Part shown: positions 3,429-41,787 of the stretch, in pieces
Layout of the letters: every line of letters begins with the position of its first letter
How positions within the stretch are numbered: position 1 is the first letter of the stretch
Origin: Carex sylvatica
Lineage: Eukaryota > Streptophyta > Magnoliopsida > Poales > Cyperaceae
Reading direction: 5' to 3'
Assembly (NCBI GenBank): GCA_964058845.1
Contig: CAXKVR010000006.1
Coordinates: 558,001 to 622,000, forward strand
Length of the DNA: 64,000 bases
The notes under the pieces: model-generated
What the model was told of the DNA's origin: nothing
Seen by the model: only the letters and a program-made list of their open reading frames with translations
Databases searched by the model: none
Translations under genes and position numbers: made by a program

Positions 3429-4248
3429 GAGGTTGGCTACTATGCTTATATAAGCATATCTCCACATATGCTTATAACTCATTTTTGTGTTTTCAATGTC
3501 CAAATGGTCGATCTGAACCGTTAGATGTGATCTCTATATTGAAATGTGCTTGGAGACTAAATTTTACATTTTTCTGAATTTTTTTACTATTTATTAAGCC
3601 ACTTTGAAAATCGCTGATCCAACGGTGGCTGCACAAAACAGTAAAATCAGCAGCCACCGTTGGATTAATAATTTTCAAAGTGGCTTAATAAATAGTAAAA
3701 AAATTCAGAAAAATATAAAATTTGGTCTCCAAGCACATATTAATATGGAGAACAAGATGAACGGTTCAGATCGACCATTTGGACATTGGAAGCACAAAAA
3801 TGAGTTATAAGCATATGTGGGGATATGCTTATATAAGCATATCCCTACATATGCTTATAACTCTTTTTTGTGTTTCCAATGTCCAAATAGTCGATCTGAA
3901 TCGTTAGATGTGATCTATATATTGAAATGTGCTTAGAGACCAAATTTTACATTTTTCTGAATTTTTTTACTATTTATTAAGCCAATTTGAAAATGTCTGA
4001 TCCAACGGTGGCTTCTGATTTTACTGTTTTGTTAAGCCATCGTTGGATCAGCGATTTTTAAAGTGACTTAATAAATAGTAAACAAATTCAGAAAAATGTA
4101 AAATTTGGTCTCCAAGAACATATTAATATGGAGAACAAGATGAACGGTTCCGATCGACCATTTGGACATTGGAAACACAAAAATGAGTTATAAGCATATG
4201 TAGGGATATGCTTATATAAGCATAGTAGCCAACCTCGTAGCCAACCTC
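3429..4248. mobile_element. Dimeric palindromic MITE in a TA repeat
   Basis: GAGGTTGGCTACTATGCT at 3429 is inverted as AGCATAGTAGCCAACCTC near 4220-4238, and the last 10 bp (GTAGCCAACCTC) are then repeated. Between the ends lie two tandem foldback units of about 390 bp. They share the AACCGTT...GTGCTTGGAGAC core and the motif AAAAATTCAGAAAAAT, and are joined at a copy of the ATGCTTATATAAGCAT palindrome (about 3826-3842). The insertion lies in a (TA)n run, so the target duplication cannot be resolved. Confidence 0.7.
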
Positions 4249-10371: not shown

Positions 10372-10787
10372 GAGTAAGTCTACCATACATTGCAATGCAT
10401 AGGCACCTCTATGCATTGAACTATAAATCACCATATTCAAAGTTCAAATGATCGATCCAAACCGTTCATCTTGTTCTCCATATTAATATGTGCTTGGAGA
10501 CCAAATTTTATATTTTTTGGAATTGTTTTACTATTTATTAAGCCACATTGAAAATCGCTGATCCAACGGTTACAGTAAAATCAAAAGGCACCGTTGGATC
10601 AGCGATTTTCAATGTGGCTTAATAAATAGTAAAAAAATTTCAAAAAATATAAAATTTGGTCTCCAAGCACATATTAATATAGAGAACAAGATGAACGGTT
10701 TGGATCGGTCATTTGGACTTTGAATCCGTGATTTATAGTCCAATGCATAGAGGTGCCTATGCATTGCAATGTATGGTAGACTTACTC
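10372..10787. mobile_element. Palindromic Mutator-like MITE with shared core
   Basis: 416 bp with a perfect 10-bp duplication AATTTATAAA (10362-10371 and 10788-10797). Ends GAGTAAGTCTACCATACATT are perfectly inverted. The whole element folds back: the GCACCGTTGGATCAGCGATT arm pairs with AATCGCTGATCCAACGGT around about 18 nt. The core AACCGTTCATCTTGTTCTCC and TATTAATATGTGCTTGGAGA recurs in the elements at 3429, 4272, 36007 and 57898. Confidence 0.9.
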
Positions 10788-18999: not shown

Positions 19000-19288
19000 A
19001 AGGTCCTGTAATCGAGTTCAAATAAAGACTATGCTTTGGTTGCAAAATAAGAGCGGAATCAACTTGAACCAAATTGACAGTGAAAGCCATAATTTAGAAA
19101 ATCAAATAGCCAATACCAATTGTACATTTTTTTTGCAAGAGTAGTCTTTCCGAGTCCACCGAGCAACCAAATTGAAACCACATAACATCTCTTAGTGTTC
19201 TCATCAAGCAACTCTTTGACAAGGTGGTTGCGATCAGCCTTGAAACCAACAATATCGGGATCGATGTCAGCTAACACCGGTGGCCTGA

Positions 19289-19479
19289 GAATTCACATCC
19301 TCTCCAATTCCTGATAAGGGAATCTTTTACAATTACTAGATCTGGACCGTTCTTTTTAACTTGGCACGAATCTCAAAGCCCAACAATACTGCCCCCTATG
19401 GTGACCCGAATCCCAAACCAGTTTGAGATTAAACCGTAAAGTAAGGGTAATCCTCTGCAATACCTGAGGATACAAACTC
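19289..19479. mobile_element. Mutator-like MITE inserted in the NLR linker
   Basis: 191 bp bounded by GAATTCACATCC and GGATACAAACTC, with perfect 9-bp direct repeats GTGGCCTGA on each side (19280-19288 and 19480-19488). The insertion lies between the coiled coil and P-loop of the NLR relic. With one repeat and the element removed, the frame runs through RLPIRPPVLADIDPD. Confidence 0.88.
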
Positions 19480-19639
19480 GTGGCCTGATGGGTAGTCTGA
19501 TATCCCCTCTGTCCTCACCCAAATTATTTATTCCATATCTAGCTTTGCTCGTGTCGATCTCTTTCAACCTTGTTTGAATATGGCCGATCTCATCTACAAA
19601 TTTGTGCATGGCTACAATCTTGTATGACATTTTCTATGG

Positions 19640-20705
19640 ATATAAGAGATGAGAGTCAGAAGCAGATAATAGACGAGAGGCAGAAACAATGAGAGACCTC
19701 CCCGGATTCACCTGTTGCGCCCAATGTTTTTGCCTCTCATCTGTTATCTGCTTCTTGTCAGCATCCTTTAGAAAAAGCCACACACAGCTAGCGGAGTTCA
19801 TTGGTTTGGTTCGGCTCAAATCAAATTAAAATAAGCTGACCAAAGTTTTATTGAAGGATGCTGACAAAAAGCAGATAACAGATGAGAGACCTCGGATTCA
19901 CCTGTTGCACTCAATGTTTTTGCCTTTCATCTGTTATCTGCCTCTTGTCAGCATCCTTCAGAAAAAGTCTCAGACAGCTAGCAGAGTTCATCGGTTCGGT
20001 TCGGCTCAAATCAAATTAAAATAAGCCCAACAAAAGTTTTATTTGGTTTTTAAAAATCAAATTAAAATAAGCCAACCAAAGTTTTATTGAAAGATGCTGA
20101 CAAGAAACAAATAACAGATGAGAGACCTCCTCGGATTCACCTGCTTCACCAAATGTTTTTGCCTCTCATCTGTTATCTGCTTCTTGTCAGCATCCTTCAG
20201 AAAAAGTCTCAGACAGCTAGCGGAGTTCATCGGTTCGGATTGACTCAAATCAAATTAAAATAAGCCAACCAAAGTTTTATTCAATTTTTAAAAATCAAAT
20301 TAAAATAACTCAACCAAAGTTTTATTCGGTTTTTAAAAGTCAAATTAAAATAAGCCAACCAAAGTTTTATCGAAGGATGCTGACAGGAAGCAGATAAAAG
20401 ATGAGAGACCTCCTCGGATTCACCTATTGCACCCAATGTTTTTGCTTCTCATCTGTTATCTGCTTCTTGTCAGCATCCTTCAGAAAAAGTCTCTGACAAC
20501 TAGCGGAGTTCATCGGTTCGGTTTGGCTCAAATCAAATTAAAATAAGCCAACCAAAGTTTTATTGAAGGATGCTGACAAGAAACAGATAACAGATGAGAG
20601 ATCTCCTCGGATTCACCTGTTGCACCCAATGTTTTTGCCTCTCATCTGTTATCTACTTCTTGTCAGCATCCTTCAGAAAAAGTATTATCTACTTCTTGTC
20701 AGCAT
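19640..20705. repeat. Tandem array of NLR-derived foldbacks (small-RNA-like)
   Basis: At least four complete units, plus a degenerate first one and an extra half arm at the end. In each, an arm of ~36 bp containing GATGCTGACAAGAAGCAG is followed by a loop (CCTCGGATTCACCTGTTGCA type) and the inverse arm. Arm pairs: 19853-19888/19924-19959, 20089-20124/20163-20199, 20372-20407/20445-20481, 20565-20600/20639-20674. A lone arm lies at 19735-19769. On the minus strand each right arm plus loop still reads FLKDADKKQITDERQKHW, the NLR coiled coil, so the array arose from the adjacent gene by inverted duplication and amplification. Units are separated by 50-100 bp of AAATTAAAATAAGCCAACC repeats. Foldbacks of ~107-110 nt with mostly paired arms resemble plant MIRNA precursors. 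Expression is unknown. Confidence 0.85.
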
Positions 20706-21207
20706 GTCTCTGTAACCACTTGCACATCAATGCCGGTTCAGCTCAAACCAAATTAAAATAAACCAACCAAAGTTTTATTCAGTTTTTAAAAAATCAAACC
20801 AAATCGACCAAACTAAATTTACCGACTGAATAAGAACTGAACCAAACAAACCAAATTAAATTTCAAATTTCGGTTTGTTCGGTTGAATTCGCAAGGTGCA
20901 AAAAACAAGAACGAGTTCAATCTATTGTAACTAAAAAACACAAGTAAAGATAGTAGTGATAGATCTAAAACAATAACTGAAGGAAAGAAAAAAAATCTAA
21001 ACATAATGGTAACAATAGAAAGGATCCTTGTTTGGAGCCATGAATCATTGAACAAGTTCAATCTGGCCTAAAATCCCGAATCAACAAAAGAAAAACAAAC
21101 AAATCAACAACAGAAAAACGAAGAAACGCCAAAACCAAATCATATGAGACAAAACCTCAAATTCGATTAAAAGAAAAACGAAGAAACGATCACAGACAAG
21201 CGATTAC

Positions 21208-27121: not shown

Positions 27122-29695
27122 TCAGTGAATATGTTGAATGTAAAACCTATCTATAATGAAATTAAACCACTTTCTTCCATTTTCCCATAATATCGTTGCC
27201 CAAATTACAAAGACAAACCCCACACCTATCCCCAATCCAATAGGAACAGAGATCCAATTTACATCAGTTGAAGACTTTGAAGGCAAACTTTTATTAAACA
27301 CATAATTTGTAGGAGTTGTTGGGCACTGTATCGATAAAGGACTTCCACACAATCCAGGGTTACCTAAGTAAGAATCATTTGAAAAGGTTGAGAACTGACG
27401 TGCTTTTGGTATTTCTCCAACTAAATTGTTGTATGACAGATTTAGTTCAGAAAGAAAAGTGAGAGAGGTGAGTTCTTGAGGGATGTGTCCGGAAAACTGA
27501 TTGGAGGAGAGATCCAGTAATTGAAGTTGCTTTAAATTACCAAATTGTTGTGGAATTGGACCAATCAGGACATTATGTGATAGGTTAAGTACATCAAGTG
27601 ACTTGAGTTTCCCGATCTCTTCAGGTATTCTCCCCCAAAATGTATTATTTGACAGATCAATGTAGCTTAATATGTTAAGTGAGTGTATCACATCAAAACT
27701 CTGTCCTTTGTATGTGACTGAAGCTCCATACGAAATGTCACCTAGACTCATCCTAAAAAACCATGCGGAATTTGTAATAGATGCACTCATCATAACCTTT
27801 AGATTCATGAAAATATTTTTAGGCAATGTACCACTGAAATGATTTGAGGAAAGGTCAAGAACTTTTAGCATGGGGAAAAAGGAATCATTTCCTTTTGTTT
27901 TGATTTCCACGTCTGAAATTTCTCCATAAAACATATTCGATCTTAAGATAAGAACTCTCAAATTTACAAGATTTCCCAGCCAATAGGGAAATATGTTCAC
28001 TATCTGGTTGTTTTCCATGTCTAAGATCACGAGATTTATTGTTTTAAGTCCACGGGCTTGACTGATATTTTGTAGCAATGGCCCGCTTAATTTGTTACTT
28101 TTCAGGTAAAGCAGTTCCAATTCAGTTTCTTTTAGAAGGCAAGATGGAATTATTCCTGTTAAATTGTTATATGAAAGATCAAGCGCTGTTAGTGATGTCA
28201 TATTACAAATGGAAAGGGGAATCTCTCCCGTGATACTATTATTTGAGAGGTCTAAGAAGTAAATATTTGTTTGGTAATTCAGAAAAGTAGGGAAATCTAT
28301 TAAATTGCACGATGCCAGCTGGATAAATTCTATTTGTGGAAATGAAGCATAGAATGACTCGTTATGATTTTCTCCTTCTATTATTGAAAACTTGTTGTTG
28401 GAGAGATCTAGAGCATCTAGGTACTTATTGTACTTGATGAATCTTGAAATTGACAATTGTCCTTGAAGATTGTTGTCTGCAAGGCCAATATTTGCCAAAT
28501 TTGATGATCCATTTGAGAACTCTGCTGGTAGATATCCTGAGAATTGGTTATCTGATAGACCCAAAGATTCCAAAGAAGGGTGAGAAAACAAAGACATGGG
28601 TATAGTACCTATCAATGTGTTTGACACTAAGTCCAATTCTTCAAGCCTTGTAAGGTTTGTTATTGAAGGTGGAATTTCTCCATAGATGTTACAGTTGTAA
28701 AGAATCAATACCGATAAGTATTGGAGATTTCCAATCGAATCTGGTAGTGAACCAGTGAAATTTATACCTGAAAGATCCAGATATTGCCAAATGCTTTGTT
28801 TGGTGAATTCTGCCAGTTCACCGGACAACATTGAATTGCCATATAATTCAAGTTTTGTTAGATTTGTAAGGTGGAATATTTCATGCGGTAAATTTCCTCT
28901 TAATCCACAACCTACCATGGATAGCTCCTGAAGAGTTGGGCCTACTTGAAAAACTGCCTTGCCCCACTCAGATCCACTGAGTGAAAGGTCAACCCCATTC
29001 AAGCGAAGAACTTGAAGCTTAGTGAGGTTGCTGAGTAAGTTTTTTAGGCCTGTATCATGAAGGTACGAGGGATAGTCGTAGATTAGATTTGATAAGTCAA
29101 GGTACATAAGGTTGGTGAGGGCAGAAATTCTGATCGGAATTTGACCGGTAAAGCCAGAATCGGACAAGTCGAGATGGGTTAAATTAGCAAGTCGCTCAAA
29201 CCCAGTTTGTGGAAGGGTAATATTAAGGAAGTTGTTCGAAGAAAGGTCGAGGTACTGAAGAGAGCTGAGATTAAAAATGCCCCTCGGAACTTGGCCGACA
29301 AAGCCAGAATAGGATAAATCAAGATGGGTTAAATTATCAAGTCGCTCAAACTCGGTTTGTGGAAGTATAACACCATGGAAATCGTTACATGAAAGGTTGA
29401 GGTTCTGAAGAGAGCTGAGGTTGAACAAAGCTGGGTTGATTTCACCCGAGATGGATCTGTTAAAAAGGTTGACTGTAGTCACCATACCGGTTTGCTTATC
29501 GCATGTGATACCATCCCATATGCAACAGTCGGTACTTGCATTCCATGAATGGAGTTCAGTGGTGTTGAAACCTTGCTTGAGTTGAATCAAGGCGTCACCT
29601 TGGTGAGGAAGGCAGTGGGCTTGTGTTAGAATGGTGGTTTTGATGGATAAGGAGATGAGAACAAGTGATAGGAAAAGAAGTACAGAAAGGACCAT
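27122..29695 (-). CDS. LRR receptor-like protein (Cf-9/Ve1-like RLP)
   Basis: A single-exon gene of 857 residues. Residues 1-27 are a hydrophobic signal peptide ending near AHC. Residues 28-66 are the LRR N-cap with QGDALIQLKQGF, HSWNASTDCC-W and GITCD. About 25 plant extracellular LRRs (LxxLxxLDLSxNxFxGxIP) follow. An island region near 650-690 (FRMSLGDISYGASVTYKGQS) is followed by four canonical LRRs. NPGLCGSPL is the C-cap. Residues ~815-837 form one membrane helix rich in Gly/Val/Ile, with a ~20-residue basic cytoplasmic tail. There is no kinase domain, so signalling needs a partner such as SOBIR1. RLPs of this class sit in the plasma membrane and sense pathogen or developmental ligands. 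Around residue 555 GLKTINLVILDMENN looks like two LRRs fused by an in-frame loss of about 25 residues. Otherwise intact. Confidence 0.9.
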   Translation of the reverse strand: MVLSVLLFLSLVLISLSIKTTILTQAHCLPHQGDALIQLKQGFNTTELHSWNASTDCCIWDGITCDKQTGMVTTVNLFNRSISGEINPALFNLSSLQNLNLSCNDFHGVILPQTEFERLDNLTHLDLSYSGFVGQVPRGIFNLSSLQYLDLSSNNFLNITLPQTGFERLANLTHLDLSDSGFTGQIPIRISALTNLMYLDLSNLIYDYPSYLHDTGLKNLLSNLTKLQVLRLNGVDLSLSGSEWGKAVFQVGPTLQELSMVGCGLRGNLPHEIFHLTNLTKLELYGNSMLSGELAEFTKQSIWQYLDLSGINFTGSLPDSIGNLQYLSVLILYNCNIYGEIPPSITNLTRLEELDLVSNTLIGTIPMSLFSHPSLESLGLSDNQFSGYLPAEFSNGSSNLANIGLADNNLQGQLSISRFIKYNKYLDALDLSNNKFSIIEGENHNESFYASFPQIEFIQLASCNLIDFPTFLNYQTNIYFLDLSNNSITGEIPLSICNMTSLTALDLSYNNLTGIIPSCLLKETELELLYLKSNKLSGPLLQNISQARGLKTINLVILDMENNQIVNIFPYWLGNLVNLRVLILRSNMFYGEISDVEIKTKGNDSFFPMLKVLDLSSNHFSGTLPKNIFMNLKVMMSASITNSAWFFRMSLGDISYGASVTYKGQSFDVIHSLNILSYIDLSNNTFWGRIPEEIGKLKSLDVLNLSHNVLIGPIPQQFGNLKQLQLLDLSSNQFSGHIPQELTSLTFLSELNLSYNNLVGEIPKARQFSTFSNDSYLGNPGLCGSPLSIQCPTTPTNYVFNKSLPSKSSTDVNWISVPIGLGIGVGFVFVIWATILWENGRKWFNFIIDRFYIQHIH

Positions 29696-39026: not shown

Positions 39027-39146
39027 GAGGAGGAGGCCGCCTTATCCGAGGAGGTCCCGAACGGAGAGGACCCACCTGGCCCTATGTATGGTCCTGTGAT
39101 CGATCCAAATTTGTTCAAGGATTTATACGAAGCAATGGAGAGATAG
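39027..39146 (+). pseudogene. Isolated coding-like tail, origin unknown
   Basis: A GC-rich patch in AT-rich DNA reads EEEAALSEEVPNGEDPPGPM then YGPVIDPNLFKDLYEAMER and a stop at 39146. Composition, acidic start and a clean stop suggest the C-terminus of a real protein. No start, no upstream exon and no family that I recognise. It may be the end of a transposon protein or a captured exon. Confidence 0.4.
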
Positions 39147-39450
39147 GGTTCAGATCATGGTTTTTTTCCTTCCAATGAATTGTAGTTGGAGCCTAGTTTG
39201 TTGTTAGGGTTCAGATCATGGTTTTTTTCCTTCCAATAAATTGTAGTTGGAGCCTAGTTTGTTGTTAGGGTTCAGATCATGGTTTTTTTCCTTCCAATAA
39301 ATTGTAGTTGGAGCCTAGTTTGTTGTTAGGGTTCAGATCATGGTTTTTTTCCTTCCAATAAATTGTAGTTGGAGCCTAGTTTGTTGTTAGGGTTCAGATT
39401 ATGGTTTTTTTTACTTCCAATGAATTGTAGTTGGAGCATAGTTCGTTGTT
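39146..39450. repeat. 61-bp tandem repeat, five copies
   Basis: The unit starts GGGTTCAGATCATGGTTTTT and ends TAGTTTGTTGTTA, at 39146, 39207, 39268, 39329 and 39390. Copies differ by only one to three bases (CAATGAAT versus CAATAAAT, and the last GATTATGG). The array starts exactly at the stop codon of the coding-like tail. Confidence 0.88.
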
Positions 39451-41787
39451 AGTTGTTATGCGTTATTTTTTTCATACATTCGTTATGTTTCTTTGTTATG
39501 TATTGATGTTATGTTATGAATTCTGATAATGATTTTGGCTTCTTGGCTTCTTGGCTTCTTGATTTTGATGATTTTAAAAATTTCTTTTGTTTACAATAAG
39601 TATTATATGCGCAATATATAAGACATTGGCAAATGTAATAACAATTAATTCCGATATATACTTTAGACCTACATTCTACTAATACATTGGTTTAGTTAAC
39701 AGACAATAAAAGCAAATGTAATGGTATTGACAAAAATAAAAGCAATGTAATTACAAATTTCAATGACTGATAGCACCATTACTCACTAAATAATTGTAAT
39801 ATGAATTCGTGAGTAATTAATATTATTAATTGTCAATTAAATTATGATATACTTTAGACCTACATAATAACATCGATTAACTTAACAATAAATGTAGCGA
39901 ATTACTAAAGAAGACTACATTCATTTGATAAAGTACACATTTAGTATTCTAAGATTAAATTACTAAAGAGTAATATAACACTTTAGTAATTATGAACTCA
40001 ATACAATTATGAACAATTGCTAAGATTAAAAAATAATATTTAGTAATTGTGAACTACTAAAGACTTTAATAATTAACAATTATGAACAATTACTAAGACT
40101 TTAATAATTAACAATTACTAAAGTGTGCTAAATTTCAATGTAATAACAATTATTTCGCCACACGCGGTTTGAGATTATAGAATTGTATTGACAATAGTAT
40201 ATATGTTAACAATTGTATTTAGTAATTGTTAACAATACAAATGTATATATCATAATTAATTGTATTTAGAAATTGTTCATAATGCTAGGAATGTAGGTCT
40301 AAGGTACATTTAGCAATTAAACAAATTAATCTAATACAATTATTTATGAGTAATTTCAACTATGAAACTTTGATTTCCCTCATAATACTATGTTAACTAA
40401 ACCAATGTGTAGTTCCATAGAAAATTGGTTTTGTTTAATTGTAAATATACTATGAATTAAAATATCATCTTGAAACTACAATATTGTGTAGTATGTCAAC
40501 AATTGATTGTAGTTTCAAAGTTCAAACATGTGATCAGTTTCAACTTTAGTTATTTAGTCGTATTTAACCACGTACAACAATGGAGGAAGAAAAAAAATGT
40601 TAGCGAACAGTTAAGAGTGGCGGAAAAGAAAGGAAAATAATGTTTTAATGAAAAGTGGGATCCGCTTGTTAGCGACACTGTATATGAACAACATCCAATA
40701 CATTTAATATTAAAATATACAAAACCTGACTAAATCAATAGAAAAGCAACACTTAAGACGTCCTTGGTTATTGATTTATTAGATTTGAATCTAGAGAAAA
40801 ATCACTTTTGGAGAGATCCCATAATAGAAAGTAATTAAGAAGATTAAATATAACAATGCATGTGCCTCATATATACCATCTAGTACTATTAAGAGATGCG
40901 ATGGTTAACCTAAAATATTGGTTGTGCAAGGGAAAAGAAAAATAACAAATATTGTCAAGAAATGCGATGTAGAACCTAAATTGGTTGAGCAAGATATAAA
41001 AAAATAATAAATAAAGAAGAAAATGCAGCAGCTTTGCTGCTTAAGGATGGAAAAAAAAGCACAAAATATTAATTAAACCTTAAGTTTTGTTGAAGCAAAT
41101 ATTTGTAATTTGTATATCGGTAGAAATTGGTCCACCAGTGAGGAATTAGTATAGCTAGCAAACATAAGATCTTAAGAGGAAAAATTGCATCTTGAAGTTT
41201 AAAAGCTTCAAACTAATAAGGGAAATTTTACCATTGAGAAGGCGATGGTTTTTTAATATGATATGGTGAAAGTAGGAATATGGTATTGAGGAGGCATTAA
41301 TTTGTTATTTGGATCTAATAGGGTGATTAATTAATTGGGAAATTTTTATGGGGATGGAGTGGGAATATAGGAGTTGAAATTAAGTACTCTATTTTTACAT
41401 TTTGGTTTATGTTGGATTTATGTTTTGATTAATAATGCATTAATTTGCAGGAGTCTTTTCATTGTGTTCAATAATCTACCAAATTTATAATATTGTTGAG
41501 TTGTAAAACATTACTTCGATCACAGTGTCCGAAAAGCTTTACAGTGCATACTTTTGCAACTTACAGATTTGTGTTTCTAAAAATTCTCTAATTTCAACCA
41601 TGCCTGAGATTTTAAATACTACCAAGGAAAAATCTCAATTTCATAAAATTCACATATAAAGCCACCCAATTTGTAATGCTGAGTTGCAAAAGATCAGTTG
41701 ACAGCGTGTCAAAGCATTAATTGTGCATATGCAGTAATTATGTACCTTGTTTTTAGCTTCTCTCGAATTGATGCTCTGTCATTTAGG
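39451..41787. other. Long AT-rich intergenic region
   Basis: 39537-39560 holds (CTTGGCTT)n. From 39760 to 40330 there are many short variants of AATTACTAAAG, AACAATTACTAA and TAATAATTAACAATT in both orientations, without a clear unit. No gene is supported. Confidence 0.5.

What the first reader, a model, noticed from the sequence alone, without database searches (positions are those of the whole stretch)
19640..20705. Array of foldbacks made from an NLR coiled-coil coding segment: candidate young small-RNA locus
Seen: four complete units (plus one degenerate and one half) each hold two ~36-nt arms in inverted orientation around a 35-48-nt loop. Read on the minus strand, arm plus loop still encode FLKDADKKQITDERQKHW, the Rx-type coiled coil of the adjacent NLR relic. 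Known: new plant MIRNA genes can arise by inverted duplication of their target (Allen et al. model), and NLRs are classic targets of miR482/2118-type and other small RNAs that keep NLR dosage low. Inference: this may be a lineage-specific MIRNA or hairpin-siRNA cluster aimed at the coiled-coil region rather than the P-loop. Tandem amplification would raise output.
Basis: partly seen in the sequence, partly recalled or inferred. Interest (0 to 1): 0.88.

Follow-up and report, generated by a model that had tools for sequence, protein, structure and literature searches.

The report
Hairpin array from dead resistance gene
Next to a dead disease-resistance gene in a sedge-like plant, a small piece of that gene has been copied back-to-back into near-perfect hairpins and repeated in tandem; it could feed small-RNA silencing, but its sequence shows no sign of being kept for that, so it is most likely genomic debris worth one small-RNA check.

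Summary
At 19640-20705 there are four complete foldbacks (paired core 36 nt, arms 42-43 nt, loops 35-40 nt), one degenerate unit and one half arm. RNA folds lie 7-11 s.d. below shuffles. The minus strand carries the Rx-type coiled-coil stretch FLKDADKKQITDERQKHW of a truncated CNL exon that continues directly from the array. New here: each spacer is the end of a dispersed repeat (TAGGGGTGTTCATCGGTTCGG; 133 places at <=2 mismatches in the held 64 Mb).

The small-RNA reading is possible but unsupported. Arms vary as much as the rest (10/74 against 10/78 sites). Arms of one unit pair no better than arms of different units (33.25 of 36 Watson-Crick pairs both ways). Predicted targeting of 121 coiled-coil loci is within the range of ordinary NLR segments. 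Foldbacks are common in the window: 48 pairs in all, and 21 of the 25 longest lie outside the array. CC-targeting NLR miRNAs are already listed (PMC10575705). Best reading: unselected tandem debris, at most a hairpin-siRNA source. Small-RNA reads would decide.

The parts
20685..20705 (-). half arm (outermost, 21 nt)
   Evidence: 95% identity over 21 nt; unit layout
20639..20681 (-). unit u0 sense (coding) arm
20558..20600 (-). unit u0 inverted arm
20447..20488 (-). unit u1 sense arm
20365..20407 (-). unit u1 inverted arm
20163..20205 (-). unit u2 sense arm
20082..20124 (-). unit u2 inverted arm
19924..19966 (-). unit u3 sense arm
19846..19888 (-). unit u3 inverted arm
19658..19776 (-). degenerate unit u4, nearest the relic: sense arm 19734-19776, inverted part 19658-19691; pairing reaches further into the loop than in u0-u3
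20501..20563 (+). spacer: end piece of the dispersed repeat (terminus TAGCGGAGTTCATCGG)
   Evidence: inner limit approximate
20218..20370 (+). spacer: dispersed repeat end with 45-bp internal tandem copies
   Evidence: inner limit approximate
19979..20087 (+). spacer: dispersed repeat end
   Evidence: inner limit approximate
19789..19851 (+). spacer: dispersed repeat end nearest the relic
   Evidence: inner limit approximate
20734..20864 (+). longer copy of the dispersed repeat beyond the array
   Evidence: best match to L168, 76% over 135 columns
19490..19795 (-). NLR relic: coiled-coil fragment running from u4 into the C-terminal CC part, with an in-frame stop
   Evidence: 35.8% identity to L033, E 4e-14
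19119..19304 (-). NLR relic: end of exon 1 with P-loop GGLGKTTLAKK
   Evidence: 54% identity to L033, E 3e-13; Pfam NB-ARC E 8e-4, below cut-off

Best explanation
The array is unselected tandem debris inside a dead CNL exon. Shown: a truncated CC-NLR exon 1 lies on the minus strand; a short coiled-coil stretch of it is joined to an inverted copy of 36-43 nt of itself and to the end of a dispersed repeat; that block is repeated, sense arms starting 190, 239, 284 and 192 bp apart. Inferred: an inverted duplication (template switching or aberrant transposition of the dispersed element) made the first foldback beside the relic, and unequal exchange or slippage between repeat pieces multiplied it. 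If the stretch is transcribed at all, its near-perfect stems would be Dicer substrates giving hairpin siRNAs that silence the locus itself; a regulatory role on living NLRs is not indicated.
For: The part before about residue 40 and exon 2 were not found in the window with 13 NLR queries at E <=0.01, and the relic has a stop. Units u0-u3 differ by 4.6-8.1% (mean 6.8%) with no slower change in arms than elsewhere: sense arm 3/37, inverted arm 7/37, loop 7/39, tail 3/32, seven-base lead 0/7 variable sites; arms 10/74 against rest 10/78, Fisher p 1.0. Within-unit Watson-Crick pairing equals cross-unit pairing (mean 33.25 of 36 for 4 and for 12 pairings, table): no covariation. Three of five units carry stops. 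Spacers end in a repeat terminus found 133 times (72+61, two of them in the array) against 0 for the backward pattern. Many other foldbacks in the window.
Against: All four complete units keep 36-nt stems with at most two mismatches on the minus strand. On the minus strand 7 of 9 arm transitions stay G-U pairable, on the plus strand 2 of 9 (counted by hand; binomial p 0.18), a weak hint that a minus-strand RNA hairpin mattered. The sense arm alone varies less (3/37) than loop or inverted arm. Four units give little power to see selection. No transcript or small-RNA data could be used.
Confidence: 0.65

Rival explanations
1. Hairpin-siRNA locus: the array is transcribed, DCL3/DCL4 cut the long near-perfect stems into mixed 21-24-nt siRNAs, which methylate the locus and perhaps quench close NLR relatives of the lost parent.
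For: Stems are long and near-perfect. A 1,081-nt minus-strand transcript would fold to -443.8 kcal/mol; units u2, u3 and u4 keep their own hairpins, while arms of u0 and u1 pair with each other (no shuffles at that length).
Against: No transcription evidence; no Rx_N locus of the 121 fetched matches a 37-nt arm better than 28/37, so trans silencing would be limited to loci not held or to partial matches.
Confidence: 0.23
2. Young MIRNA cluster (inverted-duplication model): one arm gives a discrete 21-22-nt RNA antisense to the FLKDAD codons of CNLs and lowers their dosage.
For: Antisense 21-22-mers from nine arms reach a weighted score <=3 in 1, <=4 in 3, <=5 in 13, <=6 in 29 of 121 Rx_N loci; reversed arms 0, 0, 0, 2; the 22 best listed sites lie at offsets 126-191 of the cropped cores, as expected for the homologous site. 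Carex rostrata proteins carry the motif at up to 19 of 22 residues.
Against: 86 ordinary NLR segments used as mock arms do comparably (<=4: median 4, mean 7.0; <=5: median 4, mean 7.9, max 30) to one arm (1 and 7 of 121). The best site, L040 (C7:38720-38740, two mismatches), has a first-exon ORF of only 146-147 aa against 207-216 in close relatives, so it may be dead. No conservation of the inverted, targeting arm (7/37 variable).
Confidence: 0.1
3. The array is part of a transposon family that captured an NLR fragment and spreads it.
For: Each block is bounded by the end of a dispersed repeat.
Against: No whole arm found elsewhere in the held assembly (three 21-23-nt registers at <=3 mismatches give 0, 2 and 2 places outside); no inverted partner end (TGAACACCCCTA, <=2 mismatches) within 1.2 kb of the ends found in the loci examined.
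Confidence: 0.02

Closest known systems
Inverted-duplication origin of plant MIRNA genes (Allen et al. 2004, seen only as a citation in PMC10575705; rice/Arabidopsis update PMC3237417)
   Same: Inverted copies of a protein-coding fragment in a short foldback; PMC3237417 (passages seen, with part of the abstract) reports that most TE- and pseudogene-related MIRNAs arose by inverted duplication.
   Different: Here four to five tandem foldbacks, no small RNA shown, and no arm conservation.
NLR-targeting miRNAs: miR482/2118, miR9863 and CC-targeting miR5376/miR5041 (PMC10575705, passages of its table seen)
   Same: Arm matches a conserved NLR motif, so in principle many NLRs.
   Different: Those are listed with PARE or RACE evidence; miR482/2118 aims at the P-loop, this arm at the coiled coil.
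Composite insertions and tandem duplications from alternative transposition of Ac/Ds in maize (PMC4270019, passages seen, with part of the abstract)
   Same: Transposon ends beside tandem copies of flanking gene sequence.
   Different: Those are kilobases and longer, with Ac/fAc ends and 8-bp target duplications; here blocks are ~0.2-0.3 kb and hAT identity of the repeat is not shown.

Membership tests
Plant MIRNA gene | Short foldback with a nearly fully paired arm duplex (criteria recalled from Axtell and Meyers, not read here) | tested here: met
Plant MIRNA gene | Precise excision of a 20-24-nt miRNA/miRNA* pair in small-RNA reads | not testable with these tools
   no small-RNA data
Plant MIRNA gene | Membership of a curated Rfam miRNA family | tested here: not met
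   0 matches at gathering score in the window. With the E-value threshold, 30 rows: 28 to many unrelated miRNA families at 18-40 bits against cut-offs of 64-230, best E 4.7e-6 (MIR6457), and 2 to a bacterial sRNA; read as what a long hairpin gives
Inverted-duplication (young) MIRNA | Arms extend in similarity to a target gene family | tested here: met
   best nucleotide match 28/37 in 121 held loci
Inverted-duplication (young) MIRNA | Targeting better than that of other fragments of the gene family (my test, not a published criterion) | tested here: not met
miR482/2118 superfamily | Complementary to the P-loop codons | tested here: not met
   arm lies in Rx_N profile 40-61
Hairpin-siRNA locus | Mixed-size siRNAs from a transcribed long stem | not testable with these tools
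   stem present, reads unavailable
hAT-type MITE (for the spacer repeat; label recalled) | Terminal inverted repeats and 8-bp target duplication | tested here: inconclusive
   one defined end TAGGGGTG; no partner end found in the loci examined; target duplication not tested

The most novel reading that the evidence does not exclude
A lineage-specific tandem cluster of hairpin small-RNA precursors, built from a dead sedge CNL and a dispersed repeat, that produces antisense small RNAs against the FLKDAD coiled-coil codons of living RPP13/RPP8-like NLRs not in the held part of the genome.
Probability: 0.1. Interest if true: 0.6.

Novelty: new member of a known kind. Interest (0 to 1): 0.27.

Why it matters
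If small RNAs come from it, it would catch an NLR-directed small-RNA locus at birth, with the dead parent gene beside it and a repeat as the amplifier. If not, it is a clean example of how repeat-linked rearrangement makes hairpin-capable loci that selection ignores, a useful baseline for claims of new MIRNA genes.

Tried and rejected
I first read the minus-strand stretch GATGAACTCCGCTA at the start of each block as NLR codons (NELR); alignment with dispersed copies showed it is the end of the repeat, so the NLR part starts after it. A simpler, unweighted target scan (best score <=3 in 9 of 121 loci, reversed control 1 of 121) looked favourable; it was followed by position-weighted scoring, which kept an excess over reversed arms, and by the mock-NLR control, which showed that the excess is what shared ancestry gives. 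In one search only 86 of 121 loci served as mock arms (those whose best window has <=18 of 37 mismatches); 35 were dropped, near-identical loci (<=4 differences) were excluded per mock, and for distant loci the best window may not be the homologous site; one arm (u2) was compared there, not all nine. In one search the strand was taken; 9 of 121 loci had a longer open frame on the other strand and were kept. A strand asymmetry of G-U pairs was tested and is not significant. Coding function of the array: rejected, stops in three of five units. Paper searches were seen as listings, and three papers as passages; none of the listed titles describes such an array, but I did not read the texts and claim no absence from print.

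Full report
What is there. The array at 19640-20705 is real. Read on the minus strand, each block runs: end of a dispersed repeat (CCGATGAACTCCGCTA), coiled-coil coding stretch (sense arm), a 35-40-nt loop that continues the coding stretch (KHWVQQVNPRR), an inverted copy of the sense arm, then an internal piece of the dispersed repeat leading to the next end. Sense arms start 190, 239, 284 and 192 bp apart (coordinates); much of the difference comes from extra ~45-bp copies inside the repeat piece. All five foldbacks fold far better than dinucleotide shuffles. The exact peptide FLKDADKKQITDERQKHW remains in one of five units, and three of five have in-frame stops.

Where it comes from. tblastn with 13 CNL sequences of the same genome shows a relic on the minus strand: FLKDADKKQITDERQKHWAQQV in the last block, then the C-terminal coiled-coil part with an in-frame stop, then the P-loop end of exon 1. 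The part before about residue 40 and exon 2 were not found in the window at E <=0.01. The nearest relative in the held assembly is L033 (16 of 22 residues of the motif); outside it, L033 is closest to RPP13/RPP8-like proteins of Carex rostrata, then Rhynchospora. Of the 120 listed proteins (176 found), five have 19 of 22 residues of the motif: four from Carex rostrata, two of them apparently isoforms, and one unnamed JGI protein. A transporter in the window has unnamed metagenome proteins at 81-97% and Rhynchospora as nearest named relatives at 75-77%. The plant is therefore most likely a sedge (Cyperaceae); the genus is not settled.

The spacer. A DNA search finds 46 places in the held 64 Mb (40 of 43 candidates scored); 7 are this locus and the other 39 match spacer sequence, reaching at most about 7 nt into an arm; the arm-plus-loop query finds only this locus. 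The array's repeat end is TAGCGGAGTTCATCGGTTCGG; the family end is TAGGGGTGTTCATCGGTTCGG, 133 places at <=2 mismatches including two in the array, 0 for the backward control. The end resembles hAT-type termini (recalled), but no partner end was found in the loci examined, so its class is open.

Is it kept for a function? Among the four complete blocks, variable sites are 3/37 (sense arm), 7/37 (inverted arm), 7/39 (loop), 3/32 (tail), 0/7 (lead); arms together do not differ from the rest (p 1.0). The sixteen sense-by-inverted pairings give a mean of 33.25 Watson-Crick pairs of 36 both for the four within-unit and the twelve cross-unit pairings, so there is no covariation. Divergence of 6.8% on average means the array is not brand new. 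The power of four units is low, and a G-U asymmetry favouring a minus-strand RNA (7 of 9 transitions) is not significant.

Could it target NLRs? All 121 Rx_N matches listed for the held assembly (all but one over the curated cut-off) were fetched. Antisense 21-22-mers from nine arms reach a weighted score <=4 in 3 and <=5 in 13 of 121, reversed arms 0 and 0. Shared ancestry is enough to explain this: 86 NLR segments used as mock arms give on average 7.0 and 7.9 loci (medians 4 and 4), one arm gives 1 and 7. Pattern searches with up to 3 mismatches in three registers find, outside the array, 0, 2 and 2 places, one of them the CC of L040, whose exon-1 frame is short (146-147 aa). The held assembly is probably partial: only four PAZ matches, where I would recall a dozen or more from Argonaute and Dicer genes; missing targets cannot be excluded.

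Comparison. Inverted duplication of a pseudogene or TE-linked fragment is a described route to plant MIRNAs (PMC3237417, passages). NLR miRNAs mostly aim at P-loop or other conserved motifs, with two soybean miRNAs listed at the CC domain (PMC10575705, passages). Alternative transposition of Ac/Ds makes tandem and composite copies of flanking DNA (PMC4270019, passages), a possible but untested route here.

Verdict. Observation confirmed; interpretation possible but without positive support. Ordinary in kind, unusual in its tandem, gene-derived arms.

Noticed in passing
window 10435-10725: Near-perfect foldback, 136-nt arms at 96% with a 19-nt loop, a longer hairpin than any in the array; possibly a recent MITE.
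   Followed up: no
window 3429-4236: Two tandem 383-bp copies (90%), each itself a foldback with ~190-nt arms.
   Followed up: no
window 39144-39452: Five 61-bp tandem copies at 97%.
   Followed up: no
window 27122-29695 (-): 857-aa ORF that reads like an LRR receptor-like protein (by eye), with a 150-bp internal repeat at 29134-29419.
   Followed up: no
G000 contigs C131/C552, C301/C351, C288/C539: Pairs of contigs give identical family scores, suggesting unmerged haplotypes in the held assembly.
   Followed up: no
G000 C60, C29, C114, C109, C70, C939: Clusters of Rx_N loci; C60 and C70 carry many open frames of about 900 aa.
   Followed up: no
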